Source: Isoetes taiwanensis (lineage: Eukaryota; Streptophyta; Lycopodiopsida; Isoetales; Isoetaceae). From it: a DNA stretch of 64,000 nucleotides. The notes under the pieces were generated by a model, which was given only the letters and a program-made list of their open reading frames with translations, was not told the DNA's origin and did not search any database. The DNA is taken from positions 6,738,028 through 6,802,027 of the forward strand of contig JAJEKV010000034.1 of NCBI GenBank assembly GCA_021234155.1, in the 5' to 3' direction. Positions 1 through 28,619 of the stretch are shown piece after piece (position 1 is the stretch's first letter; each line of letters begins with the position of its first letter). The position numbers were made by a program, and so were the translations under genes.

Positions 1-64
1 TCCTTCAAATCACTTCTTTTGAAGGTTTTGGCTCAGTAATTTTAGTCTTTTTATGTTCTCATTC

Positions 65-240
65 ACTTTAACTGTTACTAGCTTAGCATATACTACAAAA
101 ATGAGAAAAAAAAATTCCATTTTTCGAGGTTTGAGGATCCTATCAAGTTAGTACTTTAACTGTTACTAGCTTAGCATATACTACAAAAATGAGAAATTTT
201 TTTTCCATTTTTCGAGGTTTGAGGATCCTATCAAGTTAGT
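65..240. repeat. Two-copy tandem repeat (88-bp unit)
   Basis: Two adjacent units start at 65 and 153 with the same ACTTTAACTGTTACTAGC opening and the same GATCCTATCAAGTTAGTA ending. They are almost identical except that a run of A after GAGAA in the first unit is a run of T in the second. No coding potential is seen. Confidence 0.85.
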
Positions 241-890
241 ACTACTGGGAGCATGGTCAGTGCTTTGCTCTTGGTCTCCAAGAACATTGCTCCCCTACTC
301 ATATACGGTGCACTCACCGTATATAAACAGGAGTTCATCCCCCATACCAGCTCCATGCTAATATAGGGCCCTCCACGTATCACTGCAACCTTGAAGAGTT
401 CCAGTGGGAAGAATGAAGGGGTCCTTTACCCTGTCTCCCTCAGGGCCTACCTAGCTGCGGAAGTGTAATATACATGTCAGTAGTACATACATCAACATCA
501 TAAGACCATCACGAAGGATGGTTCACCACATATCTGCATAGACAAAGATCAGCACATCACATAGGGAGATCCTACCCAAGGCTCAGACTCAAGGGGATGA
601 CTAACGGCTTGGGTCTCCAGAGGTCATTGCAGACAGAATTCATGGCAAAAGGATTTGGCTGGCATAGGAACATGGCTTAGGGTTGTCCACTCCATCCGCC
701 CCTCCTGTGCACACTTTGCAGAGTAGGCTGAAAAGTGTTGGGACCTGACTGTAGCCCGCCGGATGCATAGCCAAAGGGCCTATTCCTGGGTTGCATCTCC
801 CAGTTCCGATGGGGCAGGTAGGGATCACTCCCTCCAGAGATCTACATGCTGACTCAAGGTGACTAGAGGGCCACTGCCCTTATTCGACTT
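241..890 (-). repeat. Diverged LTR fragment, family 1 copy A
   Basis: This stretch is the reverse complement of 34380-34964 over roughly 600 bases with scattered changes; both contain the paired CATATACGGTG / CACCGTATA motif and the GGAGTTCATCCCCCATACC block. On the minus strand the LTR would end near 285, followed by a leader-like segment (about 250-283) that is also seen next to a primer-binding site at 57630-57690. The LTR end and the PBS are deleted here. At about 890 it joins Copia sequence, with a short duplicated CCACTGCCCTTATTCGAC at the junction. There is no ORF. Confidence 0.6.
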
Positions 891-911
891 AACCCACTGC
901 CCTTATTCGAC

Positions 912-1901
912 ATTATAATATTCTTGTTTGTAATGATATGACACTCCTAACCACTGTCAAGCAGCAGCTAGCCTCAATGTTTGAAATGACTGATCTTGGA
1001 AATATCCGTTCTTGTCTTGGTTTCAACATTCAACATGATCGTTCAAAAGGATGGATGCATTTGAGTCAGACGAATGCTATACTAGAGGCTGTGGACAAGT
1101 TTGGTCTATCACAATGCAAAGTTGTAGCATCACCTATGGTTGTTAGTCCAAAGGATTTACATTTGTCTAAGCTGCATTGTCCTCAAACAGATCAAGAGCA
1201 GGATGCCATGAAAGATATTCCTTATACCAATTTGGTTGGAGCTCTTCAATACTTTGCACATGCTTCTCGTCCAGATATTTCATTTGCTGCAAATCTTTTG
1301 GGTCAATTTATGTCCAATCCTGGTAAAGAACATTGGGTTGCTGCTAAACGTGTTTTGAGATATTTGAAAGGAACAGCCAACTATGGACTTTTATATTGTA
1401 AGCAAGATGGTGAGCAAGGGATTATGTCTTTAACAGGTTATACAGATGCAGATTGGGCAAGTTCTGATCATCTAATGCGATCTAAAAGTGGGAATTGTTT
1501 TACCATTGGATCATCTTTAGTGTCATGGGCTTGCAAGAAACAAAATTGTATTGCCACTTCTACTACAGAATCTGAATATGTAGCTGCTTCATTTGCTTGT
1601 CGTGAGCTAGTTTGGTTACGACGACTCCTTACAGATTTTGGGTTTCCACAGTCTCAAAGGACAACTTTGTTTTGTGACAATCAGGGTGCTAATTCACTTG
1701 TGAAAGATCGTGTTGAATTCCAAATCTAAGCACATAGAGATACACAATCATTATGTTCGAGCAGAAGTAAAAAAGGGCACAGTTAAGACTGAATATTGTC
1801 CTTCACATTTAATGCGTGCTGATATGTTTACAAAGGCACTTAGTGAGAAGCCATTATCTGAACATAGACTTGCTTTGGGAGTTACACTAGCTCCGCTATG
1901 A
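912..1901 (+). pseudogene. Copia retrotransposon pol 3' half (end of RT, RNase H)
   Basis: The sequence encodes the end of the reverse transcriptase and the RNase H domain of a Ty1/Copia polyprotein. The RT part begins in the middle of the catalytic region, near ILVCNDMTLL, the position after YVDD in intact elements. It continues through NLVGALQYFAHASRPDISFA and KRVLRYLKGT. RNase H shows TGYTDADWASS, TSTTESEYVAAS and FCDNQGA, which hold the acidic active-site residues. A one-base frameshift near 1715 separates the main frame (938-1729) from the normal tail KSKHIEIHNHYVR to DMFTKAL (1710-1901). Gag, protease and integrase are missing because the family 1 LTR fragment abuts it at about 911. The element is dead but quite well preserved. 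Confidence 0.93.
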
Positions 1902-1907
1902 GTACTT

Positions 1908-1909
<2 letters not shown>

Positions 1910-1947
<38 letters not shown>

Positions 1948-2450
1948 AAGGTGTTTTTTATATTGCATTTATATGAAATACATGAGTACCTTTGCTTATA
2001 AAAGCAAAGAAAATCAGAAAATTCAGTAATATAGGAACTGCTATAATAGGTAGATCCTTATAGTCTTATAACAAAACTTAGATATCAGAAAAGGAGAATA
2101 AAACCGAGATAAGGTTTTCAAATATGAAAACTGTCGATAACCAAGATATTATCCCTGTAATGATTATTATGCAAGACTTCACTGTCGAATTACTAAGCCA
2201 CATCAAGCACATCCTGTAGAGTGAAGTCTGGGATGTCATTCTTGCCAAACATCCTCAGCATTGTGTCCAAGTCCTCTGGTGTATAATTGGTGAAGTCAAG
2301 TAGCAGCAGGACATGGGCTTGCCTCTTCTGCTGCCATTTATGAAACAGGTTCTCAAAGTACAGTTTGAGATTATTAAACCTCCATATGAGCACATAATCA
2401 TAGGAGGGAGCTCGTGTTTTTTCCTTTTGATTCCCACAAAAGGTTTTTTT
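1910..2450 (-). mobile_element. 5'-truncated L1-type LINE, 3' end only
   Basis: A run of 32 T (1910-1941) is a reversed poly(A) tail. It is followed on the minus strand by a 3' UTR and a 66-residue open frame (2193-2393). That frame matches the C-terminus of the larger LINE at 11310-11681: WRFNNLKLYFENLFHKW against WWWNDLKIYFAAKWEEH, and TPEDLDTMLRMF against TPLDLDELETVF. Both 3' UTRs end in a similar pyrimidine-rich motif before the A tail. It is inserted just after the Copia stop codon, between coding region and LTR. The right edge near 2450 is approximate. Confidence 0.75.
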
Positions 2451-2572
2451 TACTCAAGCTAGAGATCAATTCTGCAGGGGGGACATACATGATACATTGT
2501 GCATTTGATCTCACCTTCGAAGACACATGCTGCTTATTTTGATTTACAAAGAGACCAAGTTTGTACGGGGGA

Positions 2573-2790
2573 TGTTGGAACGTGTCATATTTACACGTGT
2601 TACAATCTTGGCTCTTTGGTTTATATTTGGCTCAAGGAGCTAAAGGGGGCTTTTGCCTTTTAGCCCTCATTGTATATAAGAGCATGCTCTCTTCATGAAT
2701 AATCATTCGCTTTGGGGTTAACTTGTGCTTTCTCTCTTTCTCTGTTGTTTTGCTGCGTCTCTTATTTCCTTGCTTGTCATATTCTCAACA
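2573..2790 (+). repeat. Copia 3' LTR (218 bp)
   Basis: The segment starts TGTTG and ends CAACA, the perfect short inverted repeat expected of a Copia LTR. It is preceded directly by a polypurine tract (GTACGGGGGA, 2563-2572). A TATA-like TGTATATAAGAG lies near 2672. Its position downstream of the Copia pol remnant, in the same orientation, makes it that element's 3' LTR. The 5' LTR is not in the window. Confidence 0.85.
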
Positions 2791-3082
2791 CTCAATACCC
2801 ACCATTTTTCTTTGTTGTCTTATCACCTCCATGCCCAGACCAGACGGTAGTTGATGAAAGTCACGAACTTGACCATCGGAAAGCTGGAAAGGAAACGACG
2901 AAGATAATAGCGCCATGGCCAACGGTGCAACTATGGTGAAAGGCCGACGAGAAGGCTGCCGAAAATGGCCATTTTTAAAAGGAGAAGGTAAGAGCTGCAA
3001 CGAATTTGTCATCGCCATGGCCATGGAAATGCTAGTTCCGAAACTAACTTTCGTTCTATTTTGTGGGACCAATCTCTTATTA
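2791..3082. other. Unassigned sequence right of the Copia LTR
   Basis: This is target-side DNA between the Copia LTR and the duplicated module. Short open frames exist on both strands but none resembles a known protein. No repeat or RNA gene is visible. Confidence 0.4.
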
Positions 3083-3237
3083 ATATGTAGCATAATAACA
3101 GGGGGTTTTCTTTGTGTTTTTGTACGCTTTTCACTAAGGTTTTCTTATGATTTCGTGATGTATTCAAATGGATGTACTAATGTGTACATCTAGAGTGCAC
3201 CATTTCTGAGCCATTGATTTTAGCCTTTTTTTTTTTC

Positions 3238-3408
3238 AATGGTCAACAACCAATGGCTCACAACAAAAGCCCTTTTTTTGTGCGTGTGGTGCATAATGGT
3301 CAACAACCAATGGCTCACAACAAAAGCCCTTTTTTTGTGCGTGTGGTGCATAATGGTCAACAACCAATGGCTCACAACAAAAGCCCTCTTTTTGTGTGTG
3401 TGGTGCAT
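3238..3408. repeat. 57-bp tandem repeat, three units
   Basis: Units begin at about 3238, 3295 and 3352 and share the core CAACAACCAATGGCTCACAA, then a T run and GTGGTGCATAATGG. Because 57 is a multiple of three, several frames on both strands stay open through the array. Those open frames are a by-product of the repeat and not evidence of genes. Confidence 0.95.
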
Positions 3409-4527: not shown

Positions 4528-6966
4528 GGCATCTGTAATAAGATTCATTGAATTGATGATGAATTCATTCATACAAATTCATTAATGACTTACTTTCCTT
4601 CATTTAAATGGACCATTATGTTCCCATATCAATGTCTTGATGAAACACTAATTTCACAGCTAGTCCTCAATTATGTTGTCTCATAACAAATAACACAAGC
4701 ACCTACTCAAATGTAGTTAGAATGTGTGCATACCAAATGAAATTGCCTTTGGCAGCGATGTGGCAGGTATGCCCAATGATCTTTTGAAGCTCGATTTTTC
4801 TGTAAACAAAAACCAGGGCCTTCAGAATTTGTATACTTGGACAATGGCCATGTAGAGCCAGACTGGCGAGAAAAGATCATGGAAGAAATTCGTCTCATTT
4901 CCCGTTGCTTTTTCATCCTCTTCTGGGTCTCACCAAGTCGAGAAATGTGATGGAAATGTTAGATGCATGTTGTTCAGAGCTGGATCGATCTTTAGTCTTC
5001 CTCCAGAACACTAAAGCACTAATTCCAGACTTTTTCTAATTCAGCCAGTCTTAACACCTTCTCTCAAATAATTCAGGGTGATTTTCTACTCAGAGCCCGA
5101 TGCTATTAATTTTTAGACTAATGGAGATCTTGCCTTGAGTTTTTAAGATGGAGTGCTCCTGGACTCGTAAATGAGAATCCCGCACTTGAATCTAATAAGC
5201 TTCTTGGCTGGGTTCGCTACTAGGCACAACATAGTCCAAACTTCGAGCTAATTGAGATGAGCCCTTATATAGGATATATGGTTAGATATTTAAATGGCTG
5301 GTCCCGTTATAAATTTATGGTTAGATAATTTTATATGGCTGGTCCCGTTATAATCTATAGCCTCAAGCCAAATAATGTTAATATTTTACATGCTTTCACA
5401 ATTTTTCTTCACGAACAATAAGACGGTAATTCTTCCAATGTCATCAGTTGCATCGTCGTCATTTTGAGATATTGGATCATCCAATAGCTGAATTTCTGCA
5501 TCGTTAACCTGTTGCAGTGATTGGTCTAGTGGCCCCATGCAATTCCTGCAAAGTATGTAGTGATGATCTTGGGTTTTTAAACAGGTTGATCTTAAAAAGC
5601 CAGGAGATTTACTTCCAAAAACATCCTGGGTCATTCAGCATCATACAACTACAAATTGGGGTTTCCGCCGCCATGCATCCGAAACCCCAGTGCTAAATAA
5701 ATATGACATCGAGAAATTAGTTTGAAGTTAAAAAGCTAAGCCACCTAGTTGACCTTTCTATGTCACATTTACTAATGCACGCCCATAAAATGAAGGTTAT
5801 GGTGAAGTTAATTTTGGAATGCGCAAGATGAGATATTTGACGTTCATAAACCATTTTGTTAAGCCCATTTTGTACCTCATCTAGCCCTACCAACAATGAT
5901 TTATTAGCATGATTTGGCTGTTATTACGAACGTTAGATGTTTACCCATACCTATCGACTTTCCGCTATTATAAACCCAGACAACGCAGACCACCAAACTC
6001 GAAACTTTCCTTCAATTAAGCTAAGCCATAAGCTCTGGCATGGTAGGTTCGGCAGACCCAATAATCTTCTGGCAAACCCAACAATGGGGAGCTTCAACAA
6101 TTCACAACTCCAGCCAATCTGGAGCCATAAGGCAACTTCCATTCCAAGTCACAACCGTTCTTTATTCGGTCCGCATGCACGCCTTGCTCTTTTTGTTTTT
6201 CTATTTTCAACGTACCTCTACAATTTCCATATGAATAAAAGGCAATAGTTAGTTTTTTTTGGACTTTTCGTTATTGTTAACAAATATGTAGTCGATTAGT
6301 ATCCAGTTTGAATGAATGCGTTATACATTCAAATGGTACCACAACTATTAATCTATGACTTTTTTTTAGCTCCTCATACAAAAGCTTAAATCTTAGAACT
6401 CTATTCCACATCACACTTGAACATCACAATATTATAATCTTACTTGGTCTGAAGTCTCCATTATTTGATTTTTCTAAGTTGCACTCATTTTTCTTTTCTT
6501 TTTTTGGGGTTGTAAATTGTAGGTGTCCATGTTATGGTTAGTTGGGGATAGTGTCCTCTAGGATTTCGTGTACATTCATAATTACATTTTTTTTAAATTT
6601 GCATTGCTTTATGGGTGATTCTGGAGGATGGGATCTTTACCCGAGATCCCATTAGGAAACTTAACAGTTTGTAATTGTACTACACATGAGTGCTAAGTTG
6701 CTATGTTTCTATATTTGCAGGAAATACGCTCAAATGATGGCAAACAATGCATGTATGTTGTAGATCTACAAAGAAATAAGATCAGCGGATGATGATCACG
6801 AAGAGATATATTATGTGAATTAAAGAAGAAGAGGGAAATCAAGTAAGTTTTTTACACCATAGATAGCGTGTATGCGTAGTGGCCAGTTTTATGTCTTATG
6901 TTGTGTTGAATAGTCTTAGAGAAATTTACGGAGAAATGCATACTATAGACAAAGGTACGCTAATTT
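4528..6966. other. No recognisable gene; weak coding-like traces
   Basis: Most of this stretch is AT-rich and lacks long open frames. On the + strand near 5140-5230 a frame reads FLRWSAPGLVNENPALESNK, which looks like decayed coding sequence, but I cannot name its source. A diverged tandem duplication containing ATGGCTGGTCCCGTTATAA lies at about 5280-5352. An open frame of 103 codons (5937-6248, +) has no recognisable domain. The 5' end of the Helitron remnant may lie in the right part. Confidence 0.4.
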
Positions 6967-6968
6967 AA

Positions 6969-7545
6969 CTGAGGAACGAAGAGAAGAGAGACGCGCGAGG
7001 CAGAGAGAACGCGCAAGGGAACGTCGAGAGCGTCCAAAAGCACAGTAATTACCAACATAACTCCCACCGAGGAACGAAGACATAGGGTGCAAAGATGGAG
7101 AGAACATGCAAGGCAATGTTCGGATTCAATAAACACTCCCACTAATATATTGTCAGGCTCGATAGTAGGAATTCCTTTGTCGCAGGCAACATCTACCACA
7201 AACGTGAATGAGATTGTTAGACCTCTAACAAGCGAAGAGAATATAGCGGATGATTTAGAACAAGGGCATTTGGCACATTGGCAAGCCTGTGCACGACGTA
7301 TGAGCTTGGCAATAAATCGAACTTATACTATGTGTACATGGAATAAGAGGTGCACATATTGCCAAATCCCACTATTGAATGTCGAGCAGGATGGATTTTG
7401 TTGCAACAATGGAAGATGGCAGCTCCCACCATTACCTCCTTTGCCCGTACCATTGAACAATTTATACAATACACCCGATTTTCAAACGGACGCTAGAAAG
7501 ATTAATAGACTGTTTTGCTTCAGTGCTTGGAGTCGATGTCTCTAA
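6969..7545 (+). pseudogene. Helitron RepHel N-terminal fragment (basic region and zinc finger)
   Basis: A basic stretch rich in EERREERRARQRERARERR is interrupted by stops near 7045 and followed by an open frame from 7087. It leads into CTWNKRCTYCQIPL and DGFCCNNGRWQLPPLPPLP, then PDFQTDARKINRLFCFSA. This order, a Cys-rich finger followed by LPPLP and a KINRLFCFSALG-like motif, is the N-terminal region of plant Helitron replication-helicase proteins. One missing base at about 7531 shifts the frame; the alternative frame continues LGVDVSKS as expected. The HUH Rep nuclease that should follow is absent, and the sequence jumps directly to the pre-helicase region. Confidence 0.8.
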
Positions 7546-18660: not shown

Positions 18661-20936
18661 GCCACATGCAACAGGCATGCCAAGAGATAGATAGTGCTAC
18701 TTAAGTTAGCATTCTTGCTGCAATGCGATCCATGATATGTATGCCAAGCACAACAATTTATAGGTGGCATATCACTTATTTACCTGGATGGGGCATTGCA
18801 CAGTCTCATCTCTATGAAGATTCTACCTTGTGTCTGGCTGGACAGCAAACACAAATGTGTCTCCTAAATCAGGAGCCAGCTTTATTAACATTTGAGAAAA
18901 GCTACTTTATGACAAGCGAATTCAACTAATGAAGATGATAGCTGCAGATACATTTACCTAGGTGAGAACTCACCGTCAACCCGACTTGTGAACTCACCTG
19001 CGGTACCCTTTGGGAAACCACTTAATGGTGGAAAAAGTAGAACCCCGGACTTAGTGCAAAGATTTTTCGTGTTCATCACGGTCAACCCGCACAAGCAAAG
19101 TCTCATTAGGTAAACGACTCAAAGATATATCCAAGCGAAATGACTCAAATATATACCTTCGCCTTTTGCTTTCTTTAAGTCGATTGCTAAGATTCTCATA
19201 TCGGTGCCAACATTTTACAATGCCGACACCTTAAAACCATGATTTTGATCTAAACGCATATGAAAGCAACAAATAAAATAATATTTCAAACTAGGACGCA
19301 AAATCCGGGATAACATCATCTTCTCTCGCTCTGCCGAGGATATAAAGGCAAATGATTCAAGAACGACACGAAAAGGTAGCGTGATCTGTTGTTTGTAGAG
19401 GAGCGGAGCAAAATAAATGGGCTCCCCATAACAAAAAGATGGCCGGTATCGAAAGTGGCTTTCATAGTTTGGTATTTGGAACCGGTTTTGATTGCTTACG
19501 TGTATGGGCTGGGAGCTTAATCTTCAAAGTCGGCAGGATATAAGTTATACAAAATAAAATACTGACTGCACAGATGTGAAACGAAATACAGGCCTTACCA
19601 ATCGCCTAGTTGTGAGCTGAAGAGCTCCGGCGCCATCGCATCGTCAGAAGAGAAGAGGGAAAGGGTAAGAATTTTAAAACGGAAAAAGAAAACTTGAAAA
19701 ACGATTGTTTAAATTTCCCTCCTTGAAGTAAATCAAATATACATTGGTATTCTTGTCTTAACATATATAAACCTCAAGGGGGCAAGATTCTTTTTCCGGA
19801 AGGAAAAAATAGAGATAGAAAAAAAAGGCCAAAGAAAATAGAAGTGAAATGAAAAAATGTTAGGACGTGTCGATGTGAAAATAGATGTGAAAAAAACACG
19901 TTTTTCTTGAAGACCTCTGATGCCGGATCCGATCCAGTCCTGTTTGCCGCTGCTCACGGATTCCACAGATCCGACCACGTTCTATCAATCTAGCAATCTT
20001 TGTTCCTGAAAAAGATGGGTAGAAGGTAAATCCTCTCTGTCATGATTTCTCTTCCAAAAAAAACTCTGTTTTTTATTGCAAGAATCCCTGTTTTTTTCCC
20101 AAATCAGAAGCGGAACATGGCCAGCATTGTCTTTGAACAGGCCGAAACTGGCCGACTGTATATTTGGGTATGGCAACGTGCTTGGTATTCTGGCAATGAT
20201 TTGTCTGCAGGTCATGTTCCGGTAAGCTTTCTATCTTTGTTCTTCAATATTTATAGTATGGGTGTTTGAAGCCTGCAAATGGGCGATGGATTCTGATGTA
20301 GGCAAGTTCACAATAGCTCGCCGGCATGCACAGATTGGAAATCGATTTGCTATTCACAATCCAAAACAGGTTGAAGATCGATTTTGGACAGGTCGATTAT
20401 GTACAGATCGGCCATGATCCGCTGGATTGAGCTACATGTTAAGAGTTGACTATGATTCAGGAGGTCTAGAAAACATGAAATATTCTGGATCTACTGGTTG
20501 TAGTTGAAAAAATCTTGTTGTTGATCTGTGCCTTAGCAAAAAACGAGTTTGCCCATCTCAAAAATCTGGCTTTCAATTAGGAAGAGAAAAAGATCCAAAA
20601 AGTCATCTGTATTCAAAGATTCGTCTGGACAGATCTTGCTGGTATGAGCTTTCAATACAGATTTGCCCTGTTACAAACTCTGGGATTCTTGGATGCTTCG
20701 GTTATCCAAAGCTAATATGATATGGAAGCTGTGTCAAATCATGCCTATGCCAGATCATGGCAAAATACAGAAGCCTAGAAGAAAATAAACCAGGTAAGTC
20801 CTTATGGTTTTACCGTTTCACATTTCAGAATTGATATATGATTTGTGCCTTGAAGATTTATCAGTTGAAGCCTGTTCTTGCTAAGCTTGTTAAAAAGCCA
20901 GGTTTGAACACAATGTGTCTTCATTTTTCTAGCCTT
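18661..20936. other. CACTA interior without recognised genes
   Basis: No long conserved frame is visible. Short gene-like pieces occur, for example a + strand frame at 20116-20214 (ASIVFEQAETGRLYIWVWQR) followed by a possible splice donor, but I do not recognise them. A stretch near 19700-19900 is strongly purine-rich on the + strand. No transposase motif was found. Confidence 0.35.
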
Positions 20937-21092
20937 GAATATGTAGCATAATAACAGGGGGTTTTCTTTGTGTTTTTGTACGCTTTTCACTAAGGTTTTC
21001 TTATGATTTCGTGATGTATTCAAATGGATGTACTAATGTGTACATCTAGAGTGCACCATTTCTGAGCCATTGATTTTAGCCTTTTTTTTTTC

Positions 21093-21263
21093 AATGGTCA
21101 ACAACCAATGGCTCACAACAAAAGCCCTTTTTTTGTGCGTGTGGTGCATAATGGTCAACAACCAATGGCTCACAACAAAAGCCCTTTTTTTGTGCGTGTG
21201 GTGCATAATGGTCAACAACCAATGGCTCACAACAAAAGCCCTCTTTTTGTGTGTGTGGTGCAT
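21093..21263. repeat. 57-bp tandem repeat, three units (copy 2)
   Basis: Units start at about 21093, 21150 and 21207 and match the array at 3238-3408 unit for unit, including the variant third unit with CTCTTTTTGTGTGTG. The array therefore existed before the module was duplicated. Confidence 0.95.
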
Positions 21264-21921
21264 AATGGCCACATGAAGGGCTTGAAGGGCGCATGTAGTG
21301 CAGTTTCCCCGCCTGCAACACATTTCTTATCATAACTTTTGATCCACATTTCTTATCATAACTTTTGATCCAGAGCTCTGTTTCAGATGATTTTTATTGC
21401 GTTGGAAAGCTCTCTCCGAGATCTTTTTGATAATGTATAATATGGATATGTTTGGTTAAGTTATCTATGCTAAAACAGCATTTTTTTCGGCCGGGTTTGG
21501 TAGGCTTTCACATCCTACTAGTTGATTAATACAGGATTGCGCTATTGGATATTGTTTTATGGCTCATTCCGAATGAAGCTTGCAAAAAATTACCATGCAG
21601 TTTTAGATTTTGAGGCAGTTATTAAGCAAATTCCAAGGCTTCTAGATCCTTGTGCTAACAAGCAGAAAAGTTTTCCACTTTGGTTTCTCACCACAAGAAT
21701 CCATGGACTTTCAGAATAATGGGATCAATCTGCTCTATCTTTATGGTAACTTTTACTTACGTTCTATTTGTTTTATTGTGATGAAATTCAAAAGCTACAG
21801 GTGATAAAAGCCTCAAATGAATTCTAGTTTTTTTCTGGTTTAAATTCTAAAATTTTTGTCACACCGGTAGGGGGGGGGGCGAAGGGGCCAAAAAAATTTT
21901 TTTGCAACACAAACCATTAAC

Positions 21922-22446
21922 ATCCAACATATAAAATTAAATCCCCAGCATAACAACCAACACATAACAACCATTGGGTCCAACACATTTAAATTCAAAT
22001 CCCCCTTAAACCCCCTTTGGTTTGGGTGCATATTCACACGGGGGGTGACGTAGGGCAGCGAGAGCCCTCATAATTGTATTTTGCACGTACGAAATCAACA
22101 CCATATAGTATTCCGCTTGAAATCTTATAGTATTTTGCGAATCTTGTTATACAGTATAGCAAATTTTGTATTTGCATACCCCACAAACGAGGAACTTTAC
22201 GTACGGTGTAGATTAAGGAATAAGGGGTAAATATGCCTATCCAATAGCTCTCGTTGCCCGGAGTCACCCCCCGTGTGAATATGCACCCAAACCAAAGGGG
22301 GTTTAAGGGGGATTTGAATTTAAATGTGTTGGACCCAATGGTTGTGTTAATTAATGTCAATGGTACTTATGTGTTGGTTGTTAGTGTCAATGGTTGTTAT
22401 GTGTTGGTTGTTATGCGTTGGGGGATTTAATTTTTATATGTTGGAT
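21922..22446. mobile_element. Long-armed MITE, copy 2 (complete right arm)
   Basis: The left arm starts ATCCAACATATAAAATTAA (21922) and the right arm ends TTAATTTTTATATGTTGGAT (22446), forming long inverted arms around a core of about 200 bases. The right arm holds the segment with GTGTTGGTTGTTATGCGTTGG that is missing from copy 1's right arm. The left arm has lost about 50 bases. No clear target duplication is visible, so the outermost base is uncertain. Confidence 0.75.
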
Positions 22447-22841
22447 CTATACTTTGATGGGGAAATAAGATTGCACATTAAAATAAAAGATTTTATGACA
22501 TACAAAATTGGAAAAGCTCTCTTATATTTCATAATTTTGTATGGGGGTGCTTTTTTTATTGACCTACCCAATTTCACGACGCTCCAGCATCGGCTCAGCA
22601 CCTATTTTCAGCTTTTTCTCGTGACGTGAAGGACGCCCTTCATCATTCTTGAAGGACGCCCTTCATCATTTTTGCAGGGTGTGCAGGCCTGCACGCGAAA
22701 AGTTTTCGCAGGCAGAATTGATTAGGTGCAGCTAGGGATTTTCGAATCGTGATCATTTTGATTTTGAAGCTTGATTGAAAGTGTAATTGGGTTGGGAAGT
22801 TCGGTTCATTCTGCTACTCTTAGGAATTCCAGCATCTAGCT

Positions 22842-23170
22842 ATGGCGCTGAAGTCCGGCGAGGTAAAAATCCCTCTATTTCTCATGCTTTTTTGTTTATC
22901 TACTGATATTGAACTAAAAACAACGCTTGATGTTATCGAGGCGCTTTTAAGAAGCGGTATGAATTTCACACAAAAGCAGAGGTTTGTGTAATGAAGGAAG
23001 AAGCCAAAGGATTTGAAGGCGAAGGATGTTTCGACCGTGATTTTCTTGAAGTCTGGCAGTGCCCACTTCGGAAAGGAAAGATAAATTTAAAATTTGTTAG
23101 GCCCCGGTTCGCCACTGTGCTGCATGACCTGCTGGAAAGGATTTATCAGAAAAGCAAGCCTACCAACAAT
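22842..23170 (+). pseudogene. Captured gene fragment inside the TIR transposon
   Basis: A seven-codon first exon (MALKSGE, 22842-22862) ends in a GTAAAA donor. An intron of about 85 bases with a TTTTAAG acceptor leads to an open exon reading KRYEFHTKAEVCVMKEEAKG, FEGEGCFDRDFLEVWQCPLR and on to LLERIYQKSKPTNNE. The frame ends at a GTTAGG donor-like site. The exon shape looks like the 5' end of a host gene. The spacing of aromatic and acidic residues faintly recalls an Agenet domain, which I cannot confirm. It faces the transposase gene and meets it near 23175. Confidence 0.4.
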
Positions 23171-23174
23171 GAGG

Positions 23175-25675
23175 TTAGGGTAACCTTTGCTCGAGCTTTT
23201 GCTTGGAGTAATACAAAGTGTCATGTTCCCTGTCATCTGAAATGTAGAAGTGAGTTTCTTTGATGATTCTTCTCTCATCTTCATCCAATTTAGGGTCATC
23301 ACTTTTGGTGGCATGTCTATATGATATATGCACTAAAAGCTCGTTCCTCCAATGCAGACTTTGAATTTCTTGCTGAATCTTGAAGCTGTAAGTTTCAGCA
23401 AAATCAATCACTGAAACTATTGCATCCTTTGGAAATGTTTCCAAACACTCCTTGAATTGCCTGGCCTGCCATCTAGCCTCATAGTTGTGTGGAATGAATT
23501 CTTTCAGCACTGTTCTGGCATTCTGGAAAATATCAGCAGCACTTGTGGTCTTGTAAACCCGGTTTAGTGACCGGTTTTTTTTCCCGACTTATAACCTCCT
23601 TTGCCATCGGGTTCTTCTTCTGATTCATATATCTACAACAAATCTGAGAAATAAAAAATAAAGCTACACCATAATGAAGCATAAAAAACAGCAACAATCT
23701 TAGTACCTTGTCATATGTCTTCCACTCCACCTGCACACCTTCACTTCTTTTGGACATATTGGCAGCTTGCTAGGTCCACAATTATTGCACTTGAGAGTTA
23801 GGCAGTCATGTGCATACCATTCTTCACTTTCATCTCTTGGACAAACAAGAGACCTCCAAAGCTCACTTGTTGAAGCATAGTGCTCTTCCTTGCCATGCAT
23901 GTTGGTCGGGACCACAAACTTCACGATGCATTTACAATTTGGACCATGAATTTTTTCATCATGTCTTACTTTGTTCATTGCAAGTCGAATAAAATCTGCT
24001 CTCATATGATACACACAACAAACATGTCTCTCTGTCCTTTTACTTTCGACATAAAGGGGTTTCAAGGCATGGCGAGAAAGAAACCTCAAACTTAGGATAC
24101 TCCCTTCCGAAGCTTATTTGGTAAAATGAAACCACGCAAAAGCAGACACAAAATTACAAAGCAATTAGAGCAATTCACAGTGAATTACGGCAATTCTGAC
24201 AATTGAACAACATCCGGCATGTGCAATCAAACTAACACGAGTATCCTCCATGAAGTGTAATGGATGCATGATCTTGAATCCTTTGACCACTCTAATCCTT
24301 ATAACATGTTTCTTGCATGGAGACACTTTCGTGTGTTATCTCTCCAAAAGTCAACTATTAGTTTCCTCTCATCATAAGAGAGTGTCAAATCTAGTATTCT
24401 TCTTGAACATGGACCATGGTCCACTACCATGCTCTTCTACTTGACCAATCTTCTATTTCTTTTGCAATGCAGACACAATCTTCCTATTGATTCATTTGCT
24501 TGGCAAAAGCGGACTTGTTAGTTTCACCATTATTTGTAAAAGTCATTGCAAACACTTCTTGCTCTCCACACATCGTATTTTTTGAATACTTATGAGCTGC
24601 AAAAAGACTCCCTCAAATTGTTAATGATTGTTTTCATTGTGTTTAATTCTTTGATGTTTGAGAGATCTAGTTCGGTATCCACTTTCTAGCACCCCTAGAA
24701 TTTCCACTCTTTCTTGGATGTAGCATTCTCACACAATTCGTTCACAAGCTTGCCTAATTCTTTTGACAACTTTCTTTTCTTCCACTTGCTGAATGAACCT
24801 TTCTTACCAACGGTAGCATCATTTGCAACTGCACCTAAGTTACCCGATTCGCAAAGCATCCACTTCTCTTTTTACGTCTTTGAATCCTCGATTTCGACTG
24901 TCTTTTTTTGAAAGCGGCTTCATAATTCTCTTGGTTTGCAAACCGCAATTCTAACTTCTGATCGAGCGAAATTTATCAATGCAAATACCTCTATTATAGC
25001 AAGTACAGTATTATGACGGTCGGATCCAACCTCTACTGACATTGCCAACATCCATAACTTCAGCATCCTCATTTGATATTCCACCATATTCTCCTGTAAT
25101 TTTAGCATGTCAGTTTAGTTTTTATAAACCAAGTAACAAATTTAAATTGCATACTTGACATGTTGAAATCATGTTCAAAGTCCATAAATTCAGCACCATT
25201 GAATGAATTACTTTCCCTTTGAAAGCGATTACATTACATCGGTCTTAATTTAGAACAAAAAAATTCAGCAATTTAATAGCAGAAGCATTTAACAAGGACT
25301 ACCTTGTCTTTCATCTTCATGATGAAATTCTTGATCTGAATATTCGACTTCATATGTAGTTTCTTCATTCCTTGTGAAATCCACTGTTTCAATGTGAGTA
25401 CCGGCCCGATTTGTGTAGGTGATTCTTCAAGGTAATTTTACGCAAATTGTGAGCGACACTCGGAAATCGCTTGGAATTGTTGTGAACTCTTGTATGCCCG
25501 CCAACATTCCCCGGGCATCAAATTGTGCACAATGCCTGGACACAGAAGCAAGGAATTCATCTCTCAACTCAAGAACCATAGTCATTAGCTTCAAGAAATT
25601 TGAAACAAAGACATAATTCGAAGGTGCAGCATTTGATTTGGGCGGGGAAATTCCAATTCGAATTGGAGATTGCAA
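23175..25675 (-). pseudogene. Transposase-like gene with VIDFAETYSF...HW motif, multi-exon
   Basis: The minus-strand gene probably starts at ATG 25675 (MQSPIRIGISPPKSNAAPSN, with FLKLMTMVLELRDEF). Later pieces are SPTQIGPVLTLKQWISQG (about 25400), an exon after a TTACAG acceptor near 25095, and a Cys-rich part (24089-23700) with RHVCCVYHMRADFIRLAMNK, CLTLKCNNCGPSKLPICPKE and RHMTRY. An intron (GTACTA...TTGTAG) leads to the core (about 23640-23175): LKEFIPHNYEARWQARQFKE, FPKDAIVSVIDFAETYSFKI, EIQSLHWR, VHISYRH and HFYISDDREHDTLYY. Proteins with this core occur in many plant and invertebrate genomes as uncharacterised repeat-borne proteins. The first Asp could be a DDE-type catalytic residue, which is inference. 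The usual C-terminal part is missing here, replaced by the + strand fragment. Confidence 0.55.
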
Positions 25676-25879
25676 AGTAAAATTTCGGGATCGATGACTT
25701 GGCCAAAAATAGCAGGAATGATGGATCTTGACTCCCGCTCAAGGCTGGCTATGGCGGGTGAAGTGCTTGACGAAACGTGAAGGGCGGTCGAAAAAATTTT
25801 ATGACGGGTATCAGCACCTTACCAGCACCAATGTCGCGACATGATTTTTTGAGTAGGTCAATAAAAAAAGCACCCATGG

Positions 25880-26330
25880 ATATGAATGGTTGTGCTTTGA
25901 TTGATGCACAAAGCTAGCTTATGCATTCATTATGTTTATGGTTACATACTTCCATTGCATGCTTTATGCAGCCATGGTGTTTTGAAACAATCTTGCACTT
26001 TGAAAATGTAACAAATTAATTGGTACATTATTGGGAAATACATTATTCATGATGATTCTAGGTTTCTTTTCTAAATACCAATCTATGTTGCAATTGAGAT
26101 CTTAAGAAAAGCAATGGACTTGGCCAAGCCCAAAAATATATATGTAAGGTTTTATGAATGTGCTGGCATTGTTCTGCGCATCTACAATTTCTTATTTTCA
26201 AGATGGATCTATATTCTGCAATTTAGTATGACCATTAAACAAGATACCCATATTCCTAGCAGAAAATCATATTATTCAATGTTTAACCAAGTTTTACTTG
26301 ATACAAAAACTCATAAAGTAGATTCTTTTT
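25880..26330. other. No recognisable gene
   Basis: This is AT-rich flank of the TIR transposon. A frame at 26114-26434 (+) is open but has no recognisable domain. A local direct repeat, TTTTACTTGATACAAAAAC, occurs at about 26291 and 26329. Confidence 0.35.
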
Positions 26331-26339
26331 TACTTGATA

Positions 26340-26420
26340 CAAAAACCTACTTTGCCGTGAGTTGGGCAAGAGAAATGTTCGCGGCGGCCAAGGCCGCCGC
26401 GATAAATTTCTTGTATAGAT
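26340..26420 (+). repeat. GC-rich perfect hairpin module, copy 2
   Basis: CGCGGCGGCC and GGCCGCCGCG are separated by AA, giving a perfect ten-pair stem. It is flanked by AAGAGAAATGTT on the left and ATAAATTTCTTGTA on the right, which are themselves partly complementary. The module matches 10575-10665, where the stem has mutated. A GC island of this kind is conspicuous in AT-rich surroundings. Confidence 0.7.
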
Positions 26421-27820
26421 TAGATTATGGCTAAACCACATACCACATACCTTATATTAAGGAATTTTTCATAACTCTAATGGGTTCACGACTCTAATGG
26501 GTTTTTTTAAGGAATTTTAAAAATTATGAGCCGTCCAATATAAAAATAAAATCTGAATTGTTCAATACATAAGGTCTTGCCACCGTACACATGGCAACGA
26601 CACTGCACCCTGCTCTTAGCACTACCATGTGACAAATCCGCTTCAAACTCTGGAGGGCGTTTTGAATCGGCTGGAGCATCTTGCAGCAACCTGCTATGGA
26701 AGCGCACCCAAAGCAAATCGCCCCAAGCCAAAACTTCCACTCCATAAGAATCCATCTAGGAGAGGGAAGCGATGGGCAAATTGGATTAGAGGAAACTACA
26801 AGGACCCCAACTCCAGCACTACACCCTGCGACAAATTCGGCACCCTGCAATAAATCCAGTTCAGTAAGGCAGCCGGTTTGATCTGGTTGGGGCACTCTAT
26901 GAAAGTGCATAAGCTGCCACTAGAATCGAACCTTGCAGCAATCCCCTATACTAGATGCTGAAACCTGTGACTTAGAGAAGGGTCTCCAAGGTCAAGAATT
27001 TATGCTCGAAGCATCTGATGTAGCCATAAGTAAGGCAGACATTCCCCGAAGCCATGCCTTGGAAACAAAAGATCCATGCAAGTATAGAAGCTGCTATAAG
27101 AATCAAAAGCTGCTTTTCTAGAGCTGCTTCTCAATGCTGCGTCTCAACCCTGGAGAGCAACAAAACCCGTTGATTTCAGCCTGGTAGAACCCCGTTAACA
27201 AGCAAAAGACAAGGTTCCTTCCGCCCTCCATCTTCAGCTAAGCGCCGATCACCGTATTCCATCGCAAATCAACCACAAATAGGCCATAAATAGAAATACA
27301 ACCATCTTCGACCATACGAATAGAACCATTGAACAAAAAAAAACCCAAATCTAATGGCTGCCATAATTTTCACCAAAACAAAATTAAACCCCAGCTTAAA
27401 AAATGATTGTAGAACTCTAATCACATACCACATACCTTATCACATACCTTATCACATACCACATACCTTATCACATACCTTTTTTTTAATTATTAACTCA
27501 ATCATTGGATACAAAACCATTAGATTTGCAAATTTAAACAATCAATACGTCTACATGCACAAATACATGTAGAGCGTAGAGCTTCAACGCACAGCTTCAG
27601 TCTCATGACAGATGAACCAGGCAATCATTCCACTAAAGATCCGCTGGACATCCGCTCCAATCTGGAATCGGAATTAAAGCGATAAACATGAACATAATAA
27701 GAAGCAATAAACATGAACAAGCATAAGAAGCAATCCGGAAGCAGAAGCAAGAATAAATTCAGATGCAACCAAATCTGGAAGGAAATTCCAAATAAGAAAG
27801 TGAAGCAAGAATCGAAATGG
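26421..27820. other. No recognised gene; microsatellite and SINE-like trace
   Basis: An irregular CACATACCTTAT array lies at about 27420-27480, with a short related piece at 26436. A B-box-like GGTTCGATTCTAG (minus strand) is present near 26928 and may mark a SINE. ATGGGTT duplications lie near 26480-26505. No frame looks coding. Confidence 0.4.
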
Positions 27821-27850
27821 CGCGGGGAGTTGAACCCCGACGAATCCACA
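27700..27850 (-). repeat. tRNA-derived SINE-like head (T-arm at 27822-27840)
   Basis: On the minus strand CGGGGTTCAACTCCCCG forms a complete T-arm with a five-pair stem and the B-box loop TTCAACT. The acceptor stem and anticodon arm are not recognisable, which excludes a working tRNA gene. It resembles the T-arm at 28634 on the same strand. Confidence 0.4.
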
Positions 27851-28619
27851 AACCACTATGCACAAACAAATTTGTCAATCTCCCAAAACTCACAAAGGAC
27901 AGAATCGCTGTCATCGCATGCAGGGAGCCCACCTGCATCCAAGCTGCCTTTGCCAGACACACCACGAGCCTCAGAAACATCTCAGAAACATCTCTACCTC
28001 ACTGGCCTCCCCACCTCAGACTGTATCTCCACCACCATCTCCTTCGGCCGCCATCGCTTCCTCCGGTTGAGTCTCAGATGATTCGCACAGCAGGTTTTTG
28101 TGGGCCAACTCAGATAAGCACAACAGAAATAGACAGAACCCTAATTTGGGGTCCTTAAAAGGTAACGCATGTGAGGGCATTATGTCATCTAAAAAAAAAC
28201 CTTCACCCAATAAAATAAAAAACCACCAACCCACCCCCCAACCACTGAAAACCCGGCCCACAAAAATCTTTTGCGAACCTTATGGCTAAAGCTTGTATTA
28301 TGGCTTCTCGGCCATTGGATAAGGGCACATGTGGCAGCATATTCCCCATCCATGAATCTAGAGCGTTCAAAGCGGGTATTTTGAAGGTCAAACTGGCCCC
28401 TGTTGACCCGACCTTTAAGGGGGCATTATTAAGGCACAGACCATTGCATAAAATAGTAATTGGATAAAACTATATTCTCGCTTTTGTACAATATAGTATG
28501 AAAGCAACAGAACGGATTACTGTATAATGTTTCTGCAATCAAAACAGTATTCTTGTAACAACTTATCTGAACCTTCACAATCTAGTTTAATTTCTGATCC
28601 TGATAGAACTCAGACTTGC

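What the first reader, a model, noticed from the sequence alone, without database searches (positions are those of the whole stretch)
22545..25875. Intact-ended TIR transposon with ATGG duplication, DFAE-motif transposase and a captured exon
Perfect 23-bp inverted ends, an exact 4-bp duplication and a minus-strand gene with a VIDFAETYSF...EIQSLHW core mark a defined transposon. The duplication length and GGGTGC termini do not fit the common plant superfamilies. The 3' part of its gene appears replaced by a + strand gene fragment with a MALKSGE first exon, a Pack-type capture. This is the best candidate for an undescribed transposon group.
Basis: partly seen in the sequence, partly recalled or inferred. 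Interest (0 to 1): 0.75.

Follow-up and report, generated by a model that had tools for sequence, protein, structure and literature searches.

The report
Quillwort cut-and-paste transposon, internally deleted copy
This is a crippled copy of a many-copy, two-gene jumping gene in what looks like a quillwort genome; it inserts by duplicating 4 bases, and it most resembles the known Sola group of DNA transposons rather than a new kind.

Summary
Window 22545-25875 is a TIR transposon flanked by ATGG. The genome holds 96 ends within 2 mismatches (reversed-pattern control 0). Of 38 paired ends tested, 35 have an exact 4-bp duplication (control 23 of 1260 mismatched pairs). Three close paralogous empty sites carry the target once.

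Two parts of the interpretation fail. (1) The "captured exon" is no capture. Full-length copies are about 7.0 kb and carry two genes whose 3' ends face each other. MALKSGE is exon 1 of the element's own second gene, a coiled-coil, RING-H2-like protein also found in divergent subfamilies. The window copy is an internal deletion that removed the 3' parts of both genes. (2) "Undescribed group" is not established. A 4-bp TSD, three conserved Asp in a predicted RNase H-like fold, about 7 kb size and variable termini match the published description of Sola, reported in moss and ferns. Homology to Sola transposases could not be tested.

By assembly size the host is probably Isoetes taiwanensis. Best reading: a Sola-like cut-and-paste family with a RING-H2 partner gene; the window copy is non-autonomous.

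The parts
22541..22544 (.). left copy of the 4-bp target site duplication, ATGG
   Evidence: paralogous empty sites hold this 4-mer position once
22545..22571 (+). left terminal inverted repeat, GGGTGCTTTTTTTATTGACCTACCCAA
22545..22688 (.). left end block (144 bp), kept in the 264-bp MITE-like copy L023
   Evidence: L023 1-144 vs window 1-144, 97.9%; mean pairwise identity of the first 144 bp among 7 full copies 0.970
22842..22862 (+). exon 1 (MALKSGE) of the element's own second gene (coiled coil + RING-H2-like protein); not a captured exon
   Evidence: present at the same place in full-length copies; donor GT follows directly
22931..23213 (+). further coding part of the second gene (N-terminal domain, open frame 22931-23263); coiled coil and RING are lost in this copy. 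Exact exon ends not modelled
23213..23214 (.). internal deletion junction: full-length position 668/4298 (about 3.6 kb missing, 2-bp overlap at the junction)
   Evidence: window 1-670 = L006 1-668; window 669-3331 = L006 4298-6983
23214..23588 (-). transposase exon fragment with the first catalytic-candidate Asp (VIDFAETYSF); the second (WSDG) and third (HDGAG) Asp are deleted
23700..24113 (-). transposase Cys-rich exon region, with frame damage in this copy
   Evidence: compared with L006/L028/L029 frames
24695..25114 (-). transposase N-terminal exon remnants (two open stretches 24695-24871 and 24920-25114)
25427..25738 (-). transposase first-exon region (MVLELRDEFLASVSRHCAQFDARGMLAG...), frame diverges from L006 after MLAG
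25753..25875 (.). right end block (123 bp), kept in L023
   Evidence: 99.2% to L023
25849..25875 (-). right terminal inverted repeat (one mismatch to the left one: ...CTACTCAA)
25876..25879 (.). right copy of the target site duplication, ATGG

Best explanation
The window holds a non-autonomous, internally deleted copy of a two-gene cut-and-paste DNA transposon family. Full-length copies (about 7.0 kb) carry a multi-exon transposase with a predicted RNase H-like core and three conserved Asp (D-x93-D-x40-D in L028). They also carry a second gene, its 3' end facing that of the transposase, for a coiled-coil protein ending in a RING-H2-like zinc finger. Likely mechanism: the transposase, perhaps with the second protein, binds the 27-bp GGGTG... 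ends, excises the element, and joins its 3' ends to target strands staggered by 4 bp; host repair yields the 4-bp duplication. Incomplete repair of excision gaps leaves deletion derivatives, such as the window copy, the 4.1-kb L024 and the 264-bp L023, which full copies can move in trans. Shown: ends, TSDs, empty sites, copy family, deletion structure, two-gene layout. Inferred: catalysis, the role of the RING protein, gap repair, trans-mobilisation. Classification: Sola-like; I put membership in Sola at about 0.65.
For: TSD 35 of 38 pairs against 23 of 1260 mismatched pairs. Empty sites L115-L117 align straight through the insertion point with one copy of the 4-mer, itself carrying one substitution. 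96 ends against control 0. Six other near-full-length copies align 87-91% to L006 over about 7 kb. Window = L006 1-668 + 4298-6983. Deletion derivatives L024 and L023 have other breakpoints, each with a 4-bp TSD. RNase H topology in the second AF2 model (beta1 71-78 with D77, beta4 165-170 followed by D171, helix 213-226 preceded by D212; pLDDT 56.9, pTM 0.50). Listed fold matches are mostly integrases, Argonautes, RuvC/resolvases and RNases H; HIV-1 integrase Z 8.0, rmsd 2.7 over 93 residues, PFV integrase Z 8.0, rmsd 3.6 over 97. D77 in 40 of 42 rows, D171 in 37 of 37, D212 in 19 of 20. Second gene: Pfam zf-RING_2 E 7e-4 in L029, under the curated cut-off. 32 of 119 second-gene places have one of 233 entered transposase places within 9 kb, 30 of 32 facing; shifting by 0.2, 0.5 and 1 Mb gives 0, 2 and 0. 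Sola description.
Against: 3 of 38 pairs lack an exact TSD (L005, one end of which reads AAT for GGG; L067/L068 and L083/L084 with one mismatch). The model is of low to middling confidence, no PDB match is below E 0.001, and the tool warns that Z 7-8 is common for models without a clear match. No Pfam transposase or integrase model matches. No Sola transposase sequence was available for comparison. 87 of 119 second-gene places have no listed transposase within 9 kb; both lists are capped, so this is not evidence of solo genes, but it does not exclude them. No transposition, expression or excision was tested.
Confidence: 0.83

Rival explanations
1. A new, undescribed superfamily of eukaryotic cut-and-paste transposons with 4-bp TSDs, GGGT termini and a RING-H2 partner protein, not homologous to Sola at superfamily level.
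For: No Pfam transposase family in 27 members scanned nor in other pieces; no credible PDB sequence relative; no relative found in viral or prokaryote collections, though those scans use few short patterns.
Against: TSD length, size, variable termini and DDD candidates all match the published Sola description, and Sola is reported in seed-free plants. The absence from Pfam says little, since I know of no Sola model there (recalled).
Confidence: 0.17
2. Pack-type element: a transposon that captured the first exon of a host gene.
For: A + strand exon with a clean splice donor lies opposite the minus-strand gene.
Against: The exon is at the same position in full-length copies. The gene occurs in divergent subfamilies (31% identical between L005 and L029; 46% between L028's place and L029) and faces the transposase in 30 of 32 located cases.
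Confidence: 0.02
3. Member of a common plant superfamily (Mutator, hAT, CACTA, PIF/Harbinger, Tc1/Mariner) with an atypical TSD.
For: Short TIRs and an accessory gene facing the transposase also occur in some of these (for example MuDR; recalled).
Against: A 4-bp TSD in 35 of 38 pairs and none over 5-11 bp in 36; no Pfam transposase match of any of these families; termini are not CACTA.
Confidence: 0.04
4. A domesticated or host gene cluster with chance inverted repeats.
For: Long partly open frames in several copies.
Against: 96 ends, 38 pairs, TSDs and empty sites.
Confidence: 0.005

Closest known systems
Sola superfamily (Sola1/2/3) of DNA transposons
   Same: 4-bp TSD, DDD-type transposase candidates, TIR length and element size within the published range, very variable termini between subfamilies, AT-rich targets; reported in moss and ferns (PMC10741241 section 20 read whole; PMC9033089 table 1 passage; PMC6786969 and PMC6890710 passages).
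   Different: A second gene for a coiled-coil, RING-H2-like protein, seen in the window family and in L025, L026, L028, L029, L030 and L032 (not recognised in L027 and L031, where only a strict pattern was tried). I did not see such a gene in the passages read on Sola, but the original Sola paper is not held. Sequence homology untested.
MuDR / Mutator (two genes with facing 3' ends)
   Same: Autonomous copies carry a transposase gene and an accessory gene with facing 3' ends (recalled for MuDR); many internally deleted derivatives (recalled).
   Different: TSD of 7-12 bp (PMC10741241 passage) against 4 bp here; no Pfam MULE match; short 27-bp TIR.
Ginger transposons
   Same: TIR DNA transposons found in plants (PMC10741241 passage).
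   Different: Carry a Gypsy-like integrase; no integrase Pfam match in any piece scanned.

Membership tests
Sola superfamily | 4-bp target site duplication | tested here: met
   35 of 38 pairs exact; empty sites
Sola superfamily | DDD transposase with RNase H-like fold | tested here: inconclusive
   Conserved D77, D171, D212 at the expected places of a predicted RNase H topology; model pLDDT 57; catalysis untested; E225 is also conserved (19 of 20)
Sola superfamily | size mostly 2-9 kb | tested here: met
   full-length copies 6.9-7.1 kb, one with an insertion 8.2 kb
Sola superfamily | TIRs of 11 to 1124 bp with very variable termini | tested here: met
   27 bp here; relatives L032 (GGGTGTTTTTTTATTGGTGG..., TSD TTTA) and L028 (GGGTAAACGCAGG..., TSD TTGA, read by eye) differ
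Sola superfamily | sequence homology of the transposase to Sola1, Sola2 or Sola3 | not testable with these tools
   no Repbase; Bao et al. 2009 not held; nothing relevant matched in Pfam
Mutator (MULE) | 7-12 bp TSD | tested here: not met
   0 of 36 pairs match over 5-11 bp
hAT | 8-bp TSD (recalled), hAT transposase | tested here: not met
   no Pfam match
PIF/Harbinger | 3-bp TSD (canonical families; PMC12730594 passage) | tested here: not met
   match over exactly 3 bp in 2 of 36, both runs of T; 4 bp in 33 of 36
CACTA | CACTA/CACTG termini, 3-bp TSD (recalled) | tested here: not met
   termini GGGTGC...GCACCC
Tc1/Mariner | TA TSD | tested here: not met
piggyBac / Kolobok | fixed TTAA target (recalled) | tested here: not met
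   TTAA is none of the 33 exact TSDs listed nor of the 2
Ginger | Gypsy-like integrase | tested here: inconclusive
   no integrase family matched in Pfam, but the predicted fold is RNase H-like as in integrases
Pack-TE (captured host exon) | host gene fragment inserted between the ends, absent from full-length copies | tested here: not met
   exon present at the same position in full-length copies

The most novel reading that the evidence does not exclude
An unrecognised superfamily, or a deep separate lineage of Sola, of two-gene transposons in lycophytes. In it a RING-H2 coiled-coil protein, likely a ubiquitin-ligase-type partner, is an obligate second gene with its 3' end facing that of a DDD transposase; it has diversified into many subfamilies within one genome.
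Probability: 0.25. Interest if true: 0.6.

Novelty: new variant of a known kind. Interest (0 to 1): 0.4.

Why it matters
DNA transposons of seed-free plants are poorly classified (my view). A family with clean ends, a fixed 4-bp duplication, empty sites, deletion derivatives and a conserved RING-type partner gives a defined system in a lycophyte. The partner protein raises a testable question: whether a plant transposon carries its own ubiquitin-pathway factor to control its transposase or host silencing. It also shows that apparent exon capture in a short copy can be the scar of an internal deletion.

Tried and rejected
Pfam scans of the window fragments, of long frames in full copies and of the 27 rows of A1 gave no transposase family; the few weak matches (for example IFT80 beta-propeller, 2 of 27 members, best E 7e-5) look like chance. 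PDB sequence searches gave nothing credible. The first AF2 model (27 rows, pLDDT 47) was replaced by one from 45 rows (pLDDT 57), still modest. In the PDB fold list not every row is RNase H-like (ribosomal proteins, de novo designs, an Mre11-Rad50-Nbs1 chain also appear), and earlier rows included sugar kinases. No relatives in viral contigs or genome contigs; the scans use few short peptide patterns, so this is weak evidence of absence. Rfam gave nothing at 20000-28000. The strict RING pattern was found in one open frame in 6 of 17 loci (L005, L011, L024, L025, L028, L029); L026 and L030 have C-x4-C at the last pair (read), others have broken frames or no match. L028's RING scores only E 0.18 in Pfam. 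For L025, L026, L027 and L030 only one end was recognised in the 10 kb fetched, and for L029 and L031 no convincing end, so their TSDs are untested. Of the 96 ends, 74 were used in the 38 pairs (one partner each of two pairs came); the other 22 were not paired and not tested. L077/L078 and L083/L084 share flanks, so the 38 pairs are at most 37 independent sites. The right end block of full copies (6860-6983) is no more alike (0.94) than the body (0.91-0.96), so I do not claim selection on whole end blocks. Literature: the listings showed no report of this family; only open-licence papers are held and supplements were not read. I recall animal proteins with DF[SA]EN[YW]...HGKG..DG motifs; this is memory only and was used in no call.

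Full report
Observation. The element at 22545-25875 is real. Its ends are a perfect 23-bp inverted repeat (27 bp with one mismatch), flanked by ATGG on both sides. Chance is excluded: the 23-mer occurs twice in the window and never in 100 shuffles. In the whole genome the 27-mer at up to 2 mismatches gives 47 forward and 49 reverse matches against 0 and 0 for the reversed pattern.

Target duplication. I fetched the flanks of 37 further pairs of ends lying on one contig; with the window that makes 38. 35 of 38 have an exact 4-bp duplication (33 of 36, 2 of 2), and none of the 36 matches over 5 to 11 bp. Matching left flanks with the wrong right flanks gives 23 of 1260. The three failures are L005 (one end reads AAT instead of GGG), L067/L068 and L083/L084 (one mismatch each). 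The last pair shares its flanks with L077/L078, so at most 37 sites are independent. The duplicated 4-mers are AT-rich and varied (T at position 2 in 21 of 33), with no fixed target.

Empty sites. The DNA to the right of the window element is repeated elsewhere. Three close paralogues (L115, L116, L117) align across the insertion point without a break to the window flanks joined over the element. They have a single copy of the 4-mer there, with one substitution relative to ATGG. L118 also has it once but is more diverged, and L119 has small gaps at the point. This is what insertion with a 4-bp duplication predicts.

What a full-length copy is. Seven near-full-length copies (L005-L010, L012) are 6.9-7.1 kb, and an eighth (L011, 8.2 kb) carries an insertion; the six others of the seven are 87-91% identical to L006 over the whole length. 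Window 1-670 corresponds to L006 1-668, and window 669-3331 to L006 4298-6983. The window copy therefore lacks about 3.6 kb from its middle, with a 2-bp overlap at the junction. L024 (4135 bp) and L023 (264 bp, only the two end blocks) are other deletion derivatives with other breakpoints and their own 4-bp duplications. Among the seven copies the outer 27 bp are alike (identity 1.0), apart from the outermost base of one end of L010 and the three outermost bases of L005, which that calculation did not include. Internal 300-bp windows are 91-96% identical.

The two genes. On the minus strand lies a multi-exon transposase. Its core exon in relatives reads, in L028, VIDFAENY...WSDGCAAQFK...HGKGEHDGAGAVIKR. 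The window keeps only the first of these motifs. On the plus strand lies a second gene, and MALKSGE is its first exon. In full copies the second gene continues into a coiled coil and a zinc finger, C-x2-C...C-x-H-x2-H-x2-C...C-x2-3-C, for example in L005 and L029. Pfam reports zf-RING_2 at E 7e-4, below its curated cut-off, for L029. The second proteins of L005 (window family) and L029 are 31% identical over 300 aligned columns. Of 119 places encoding a relative of this protein, 32 have one of 233 entered transposase places within 9 kb, 30 of 32 with the 3' ends facing each other; shifting the positions by 0.2, 0.5 and 1 Mb gives 0, 2 and 0. Both lists are capped, so 32 is a lower bound. The 'captured exon' is thus a native part of the element, and the apparent replacement of the 3' part of the transposase gene is the deletion.

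Catalytic core. The second AF2 model (45 rows, pLDDT 56.9, pTM 0.50) has the RNase H order of strands and helices. D77 lies at the end of the first strand, D171 just after the fourth and D212 just before the following helix. Conservation: D77 40 of 42, D171 37 of 37, D212 19 of 20; E225 is also conserved, 19 of 20. Listed fold matches are mostly integrases, Argonautes, resolvases, RuvC and RNases H. VIA-align gives 10 of 1000 chains at Z 8 or more, among them HIV-1 integrase (Z 8.0, rmsd 2.7, 93 residues) and PFV integrase (Z 8.0, rmsd 3.6, 97 residues); the top row is an Argonaute at Z 9.2, rmsd 6.0, 127 residues. No PDB match falls below E 0.001, and such Z values can reflect a common arrangement only (tool note). 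I take the RNase H-like fold as probable and the triad as a proposal.

Relatives. The transposase is a large family here: 5779 and 9952 first-look candidates for two queries (rough numbers), of which 150 and 116 were scored. Two divergent subfamilies with recognisable ends also start with GGGT and have 4-bp duplications: L032 (TTTA) and L028 (TTGA, read by eye).

Host. The assembly (1,658,258,908 bases, 1110 contigs) agrees with the published Isoetes taiwanensis assembly (1658.30 Mb, 204 scaffolds plus 909 contigs; PMC8566536, passages read). A land-plant-type rbcL is present (my reading of the sequence). The identification is inferred from these numbers. That paper's main text does not mention Sola (0 occurrences), nor does the I. 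sinensis paper PMC10541799 (0 occurrences). Their supplements were not read.

Classification. The published description of Sola is a DDD transposase, 4-bp duplications, mostly 2-9 kb, very variable termini and TIRs of 11-1124 bp, found in Physcomitrella and seemingly not common in flowering plants (PMC10741241 section 20, read whole). SOLA elements are also reported in Azolla (PMC6786969 passage) and Ceratopteris (PMC6890710 passage). Sola2 elements in amoebae have AT-rich 4-bp duplications and short TIRs (PMC3627910 passage). What could be tested here agrees. The decisive feature, homology to Sola transposases, could not be tested, so I do not file it as a proven member. It works like a Sola element and probably is one (about 0.65).

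Mechanism. Most likely cut-and-paste: transposase recognition of the 27-bp ends, excision, strand transfer at a 4-bp stagger, and repair. Deletion derivatives arise by incomplete repair of the gap left by excision and are moved in trans. The RING-H2 protein may help bind the ends, or regulate the transposase or host factors through ubiquitin; that is a guess from the domain alone.

Noticed in passing
window about 21501-22446: Left neighbour: another repeated element with long inverted arms near its end (99-bp arms at 21967-22065 and 22247-22345, 96%). Related DNA lies inside L011 (6151-6842) and in L025; homology of the empty-site loci begins just to its right at 22442, which marks its end.
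   Followed up: partly
L077/L078 and L083/L084 (contigs C1049 and C1067): Two copies of about 5.04 kb on different contigs share the same flanking bases, so they are probably a segmental duplication or an unmerged haplotype, not two insertions.
   Followed up: no
window 22627-22672: A 23-bp tandem duplication (TGAAGGACGCCCTTCATCAT..) inside the left end block of the element.
   Followed up: no
L033 (contig C1052) and L034 (contig C840): Two different rbcL open frames: one beside frames that look like accD and atpB (recognised from memory; plastome-like), the other at 5.4 Mb on a long contig, perhaps an organellar insertion.
   Followed up: no
L061/L062 (contig C916, ends 43.8 kb apart): Matching ends 43.8 kb apart share a 4-bp duplication GGGT; probably one copy split by nested insertions, but it could also be a large composite.
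   Followed up: no
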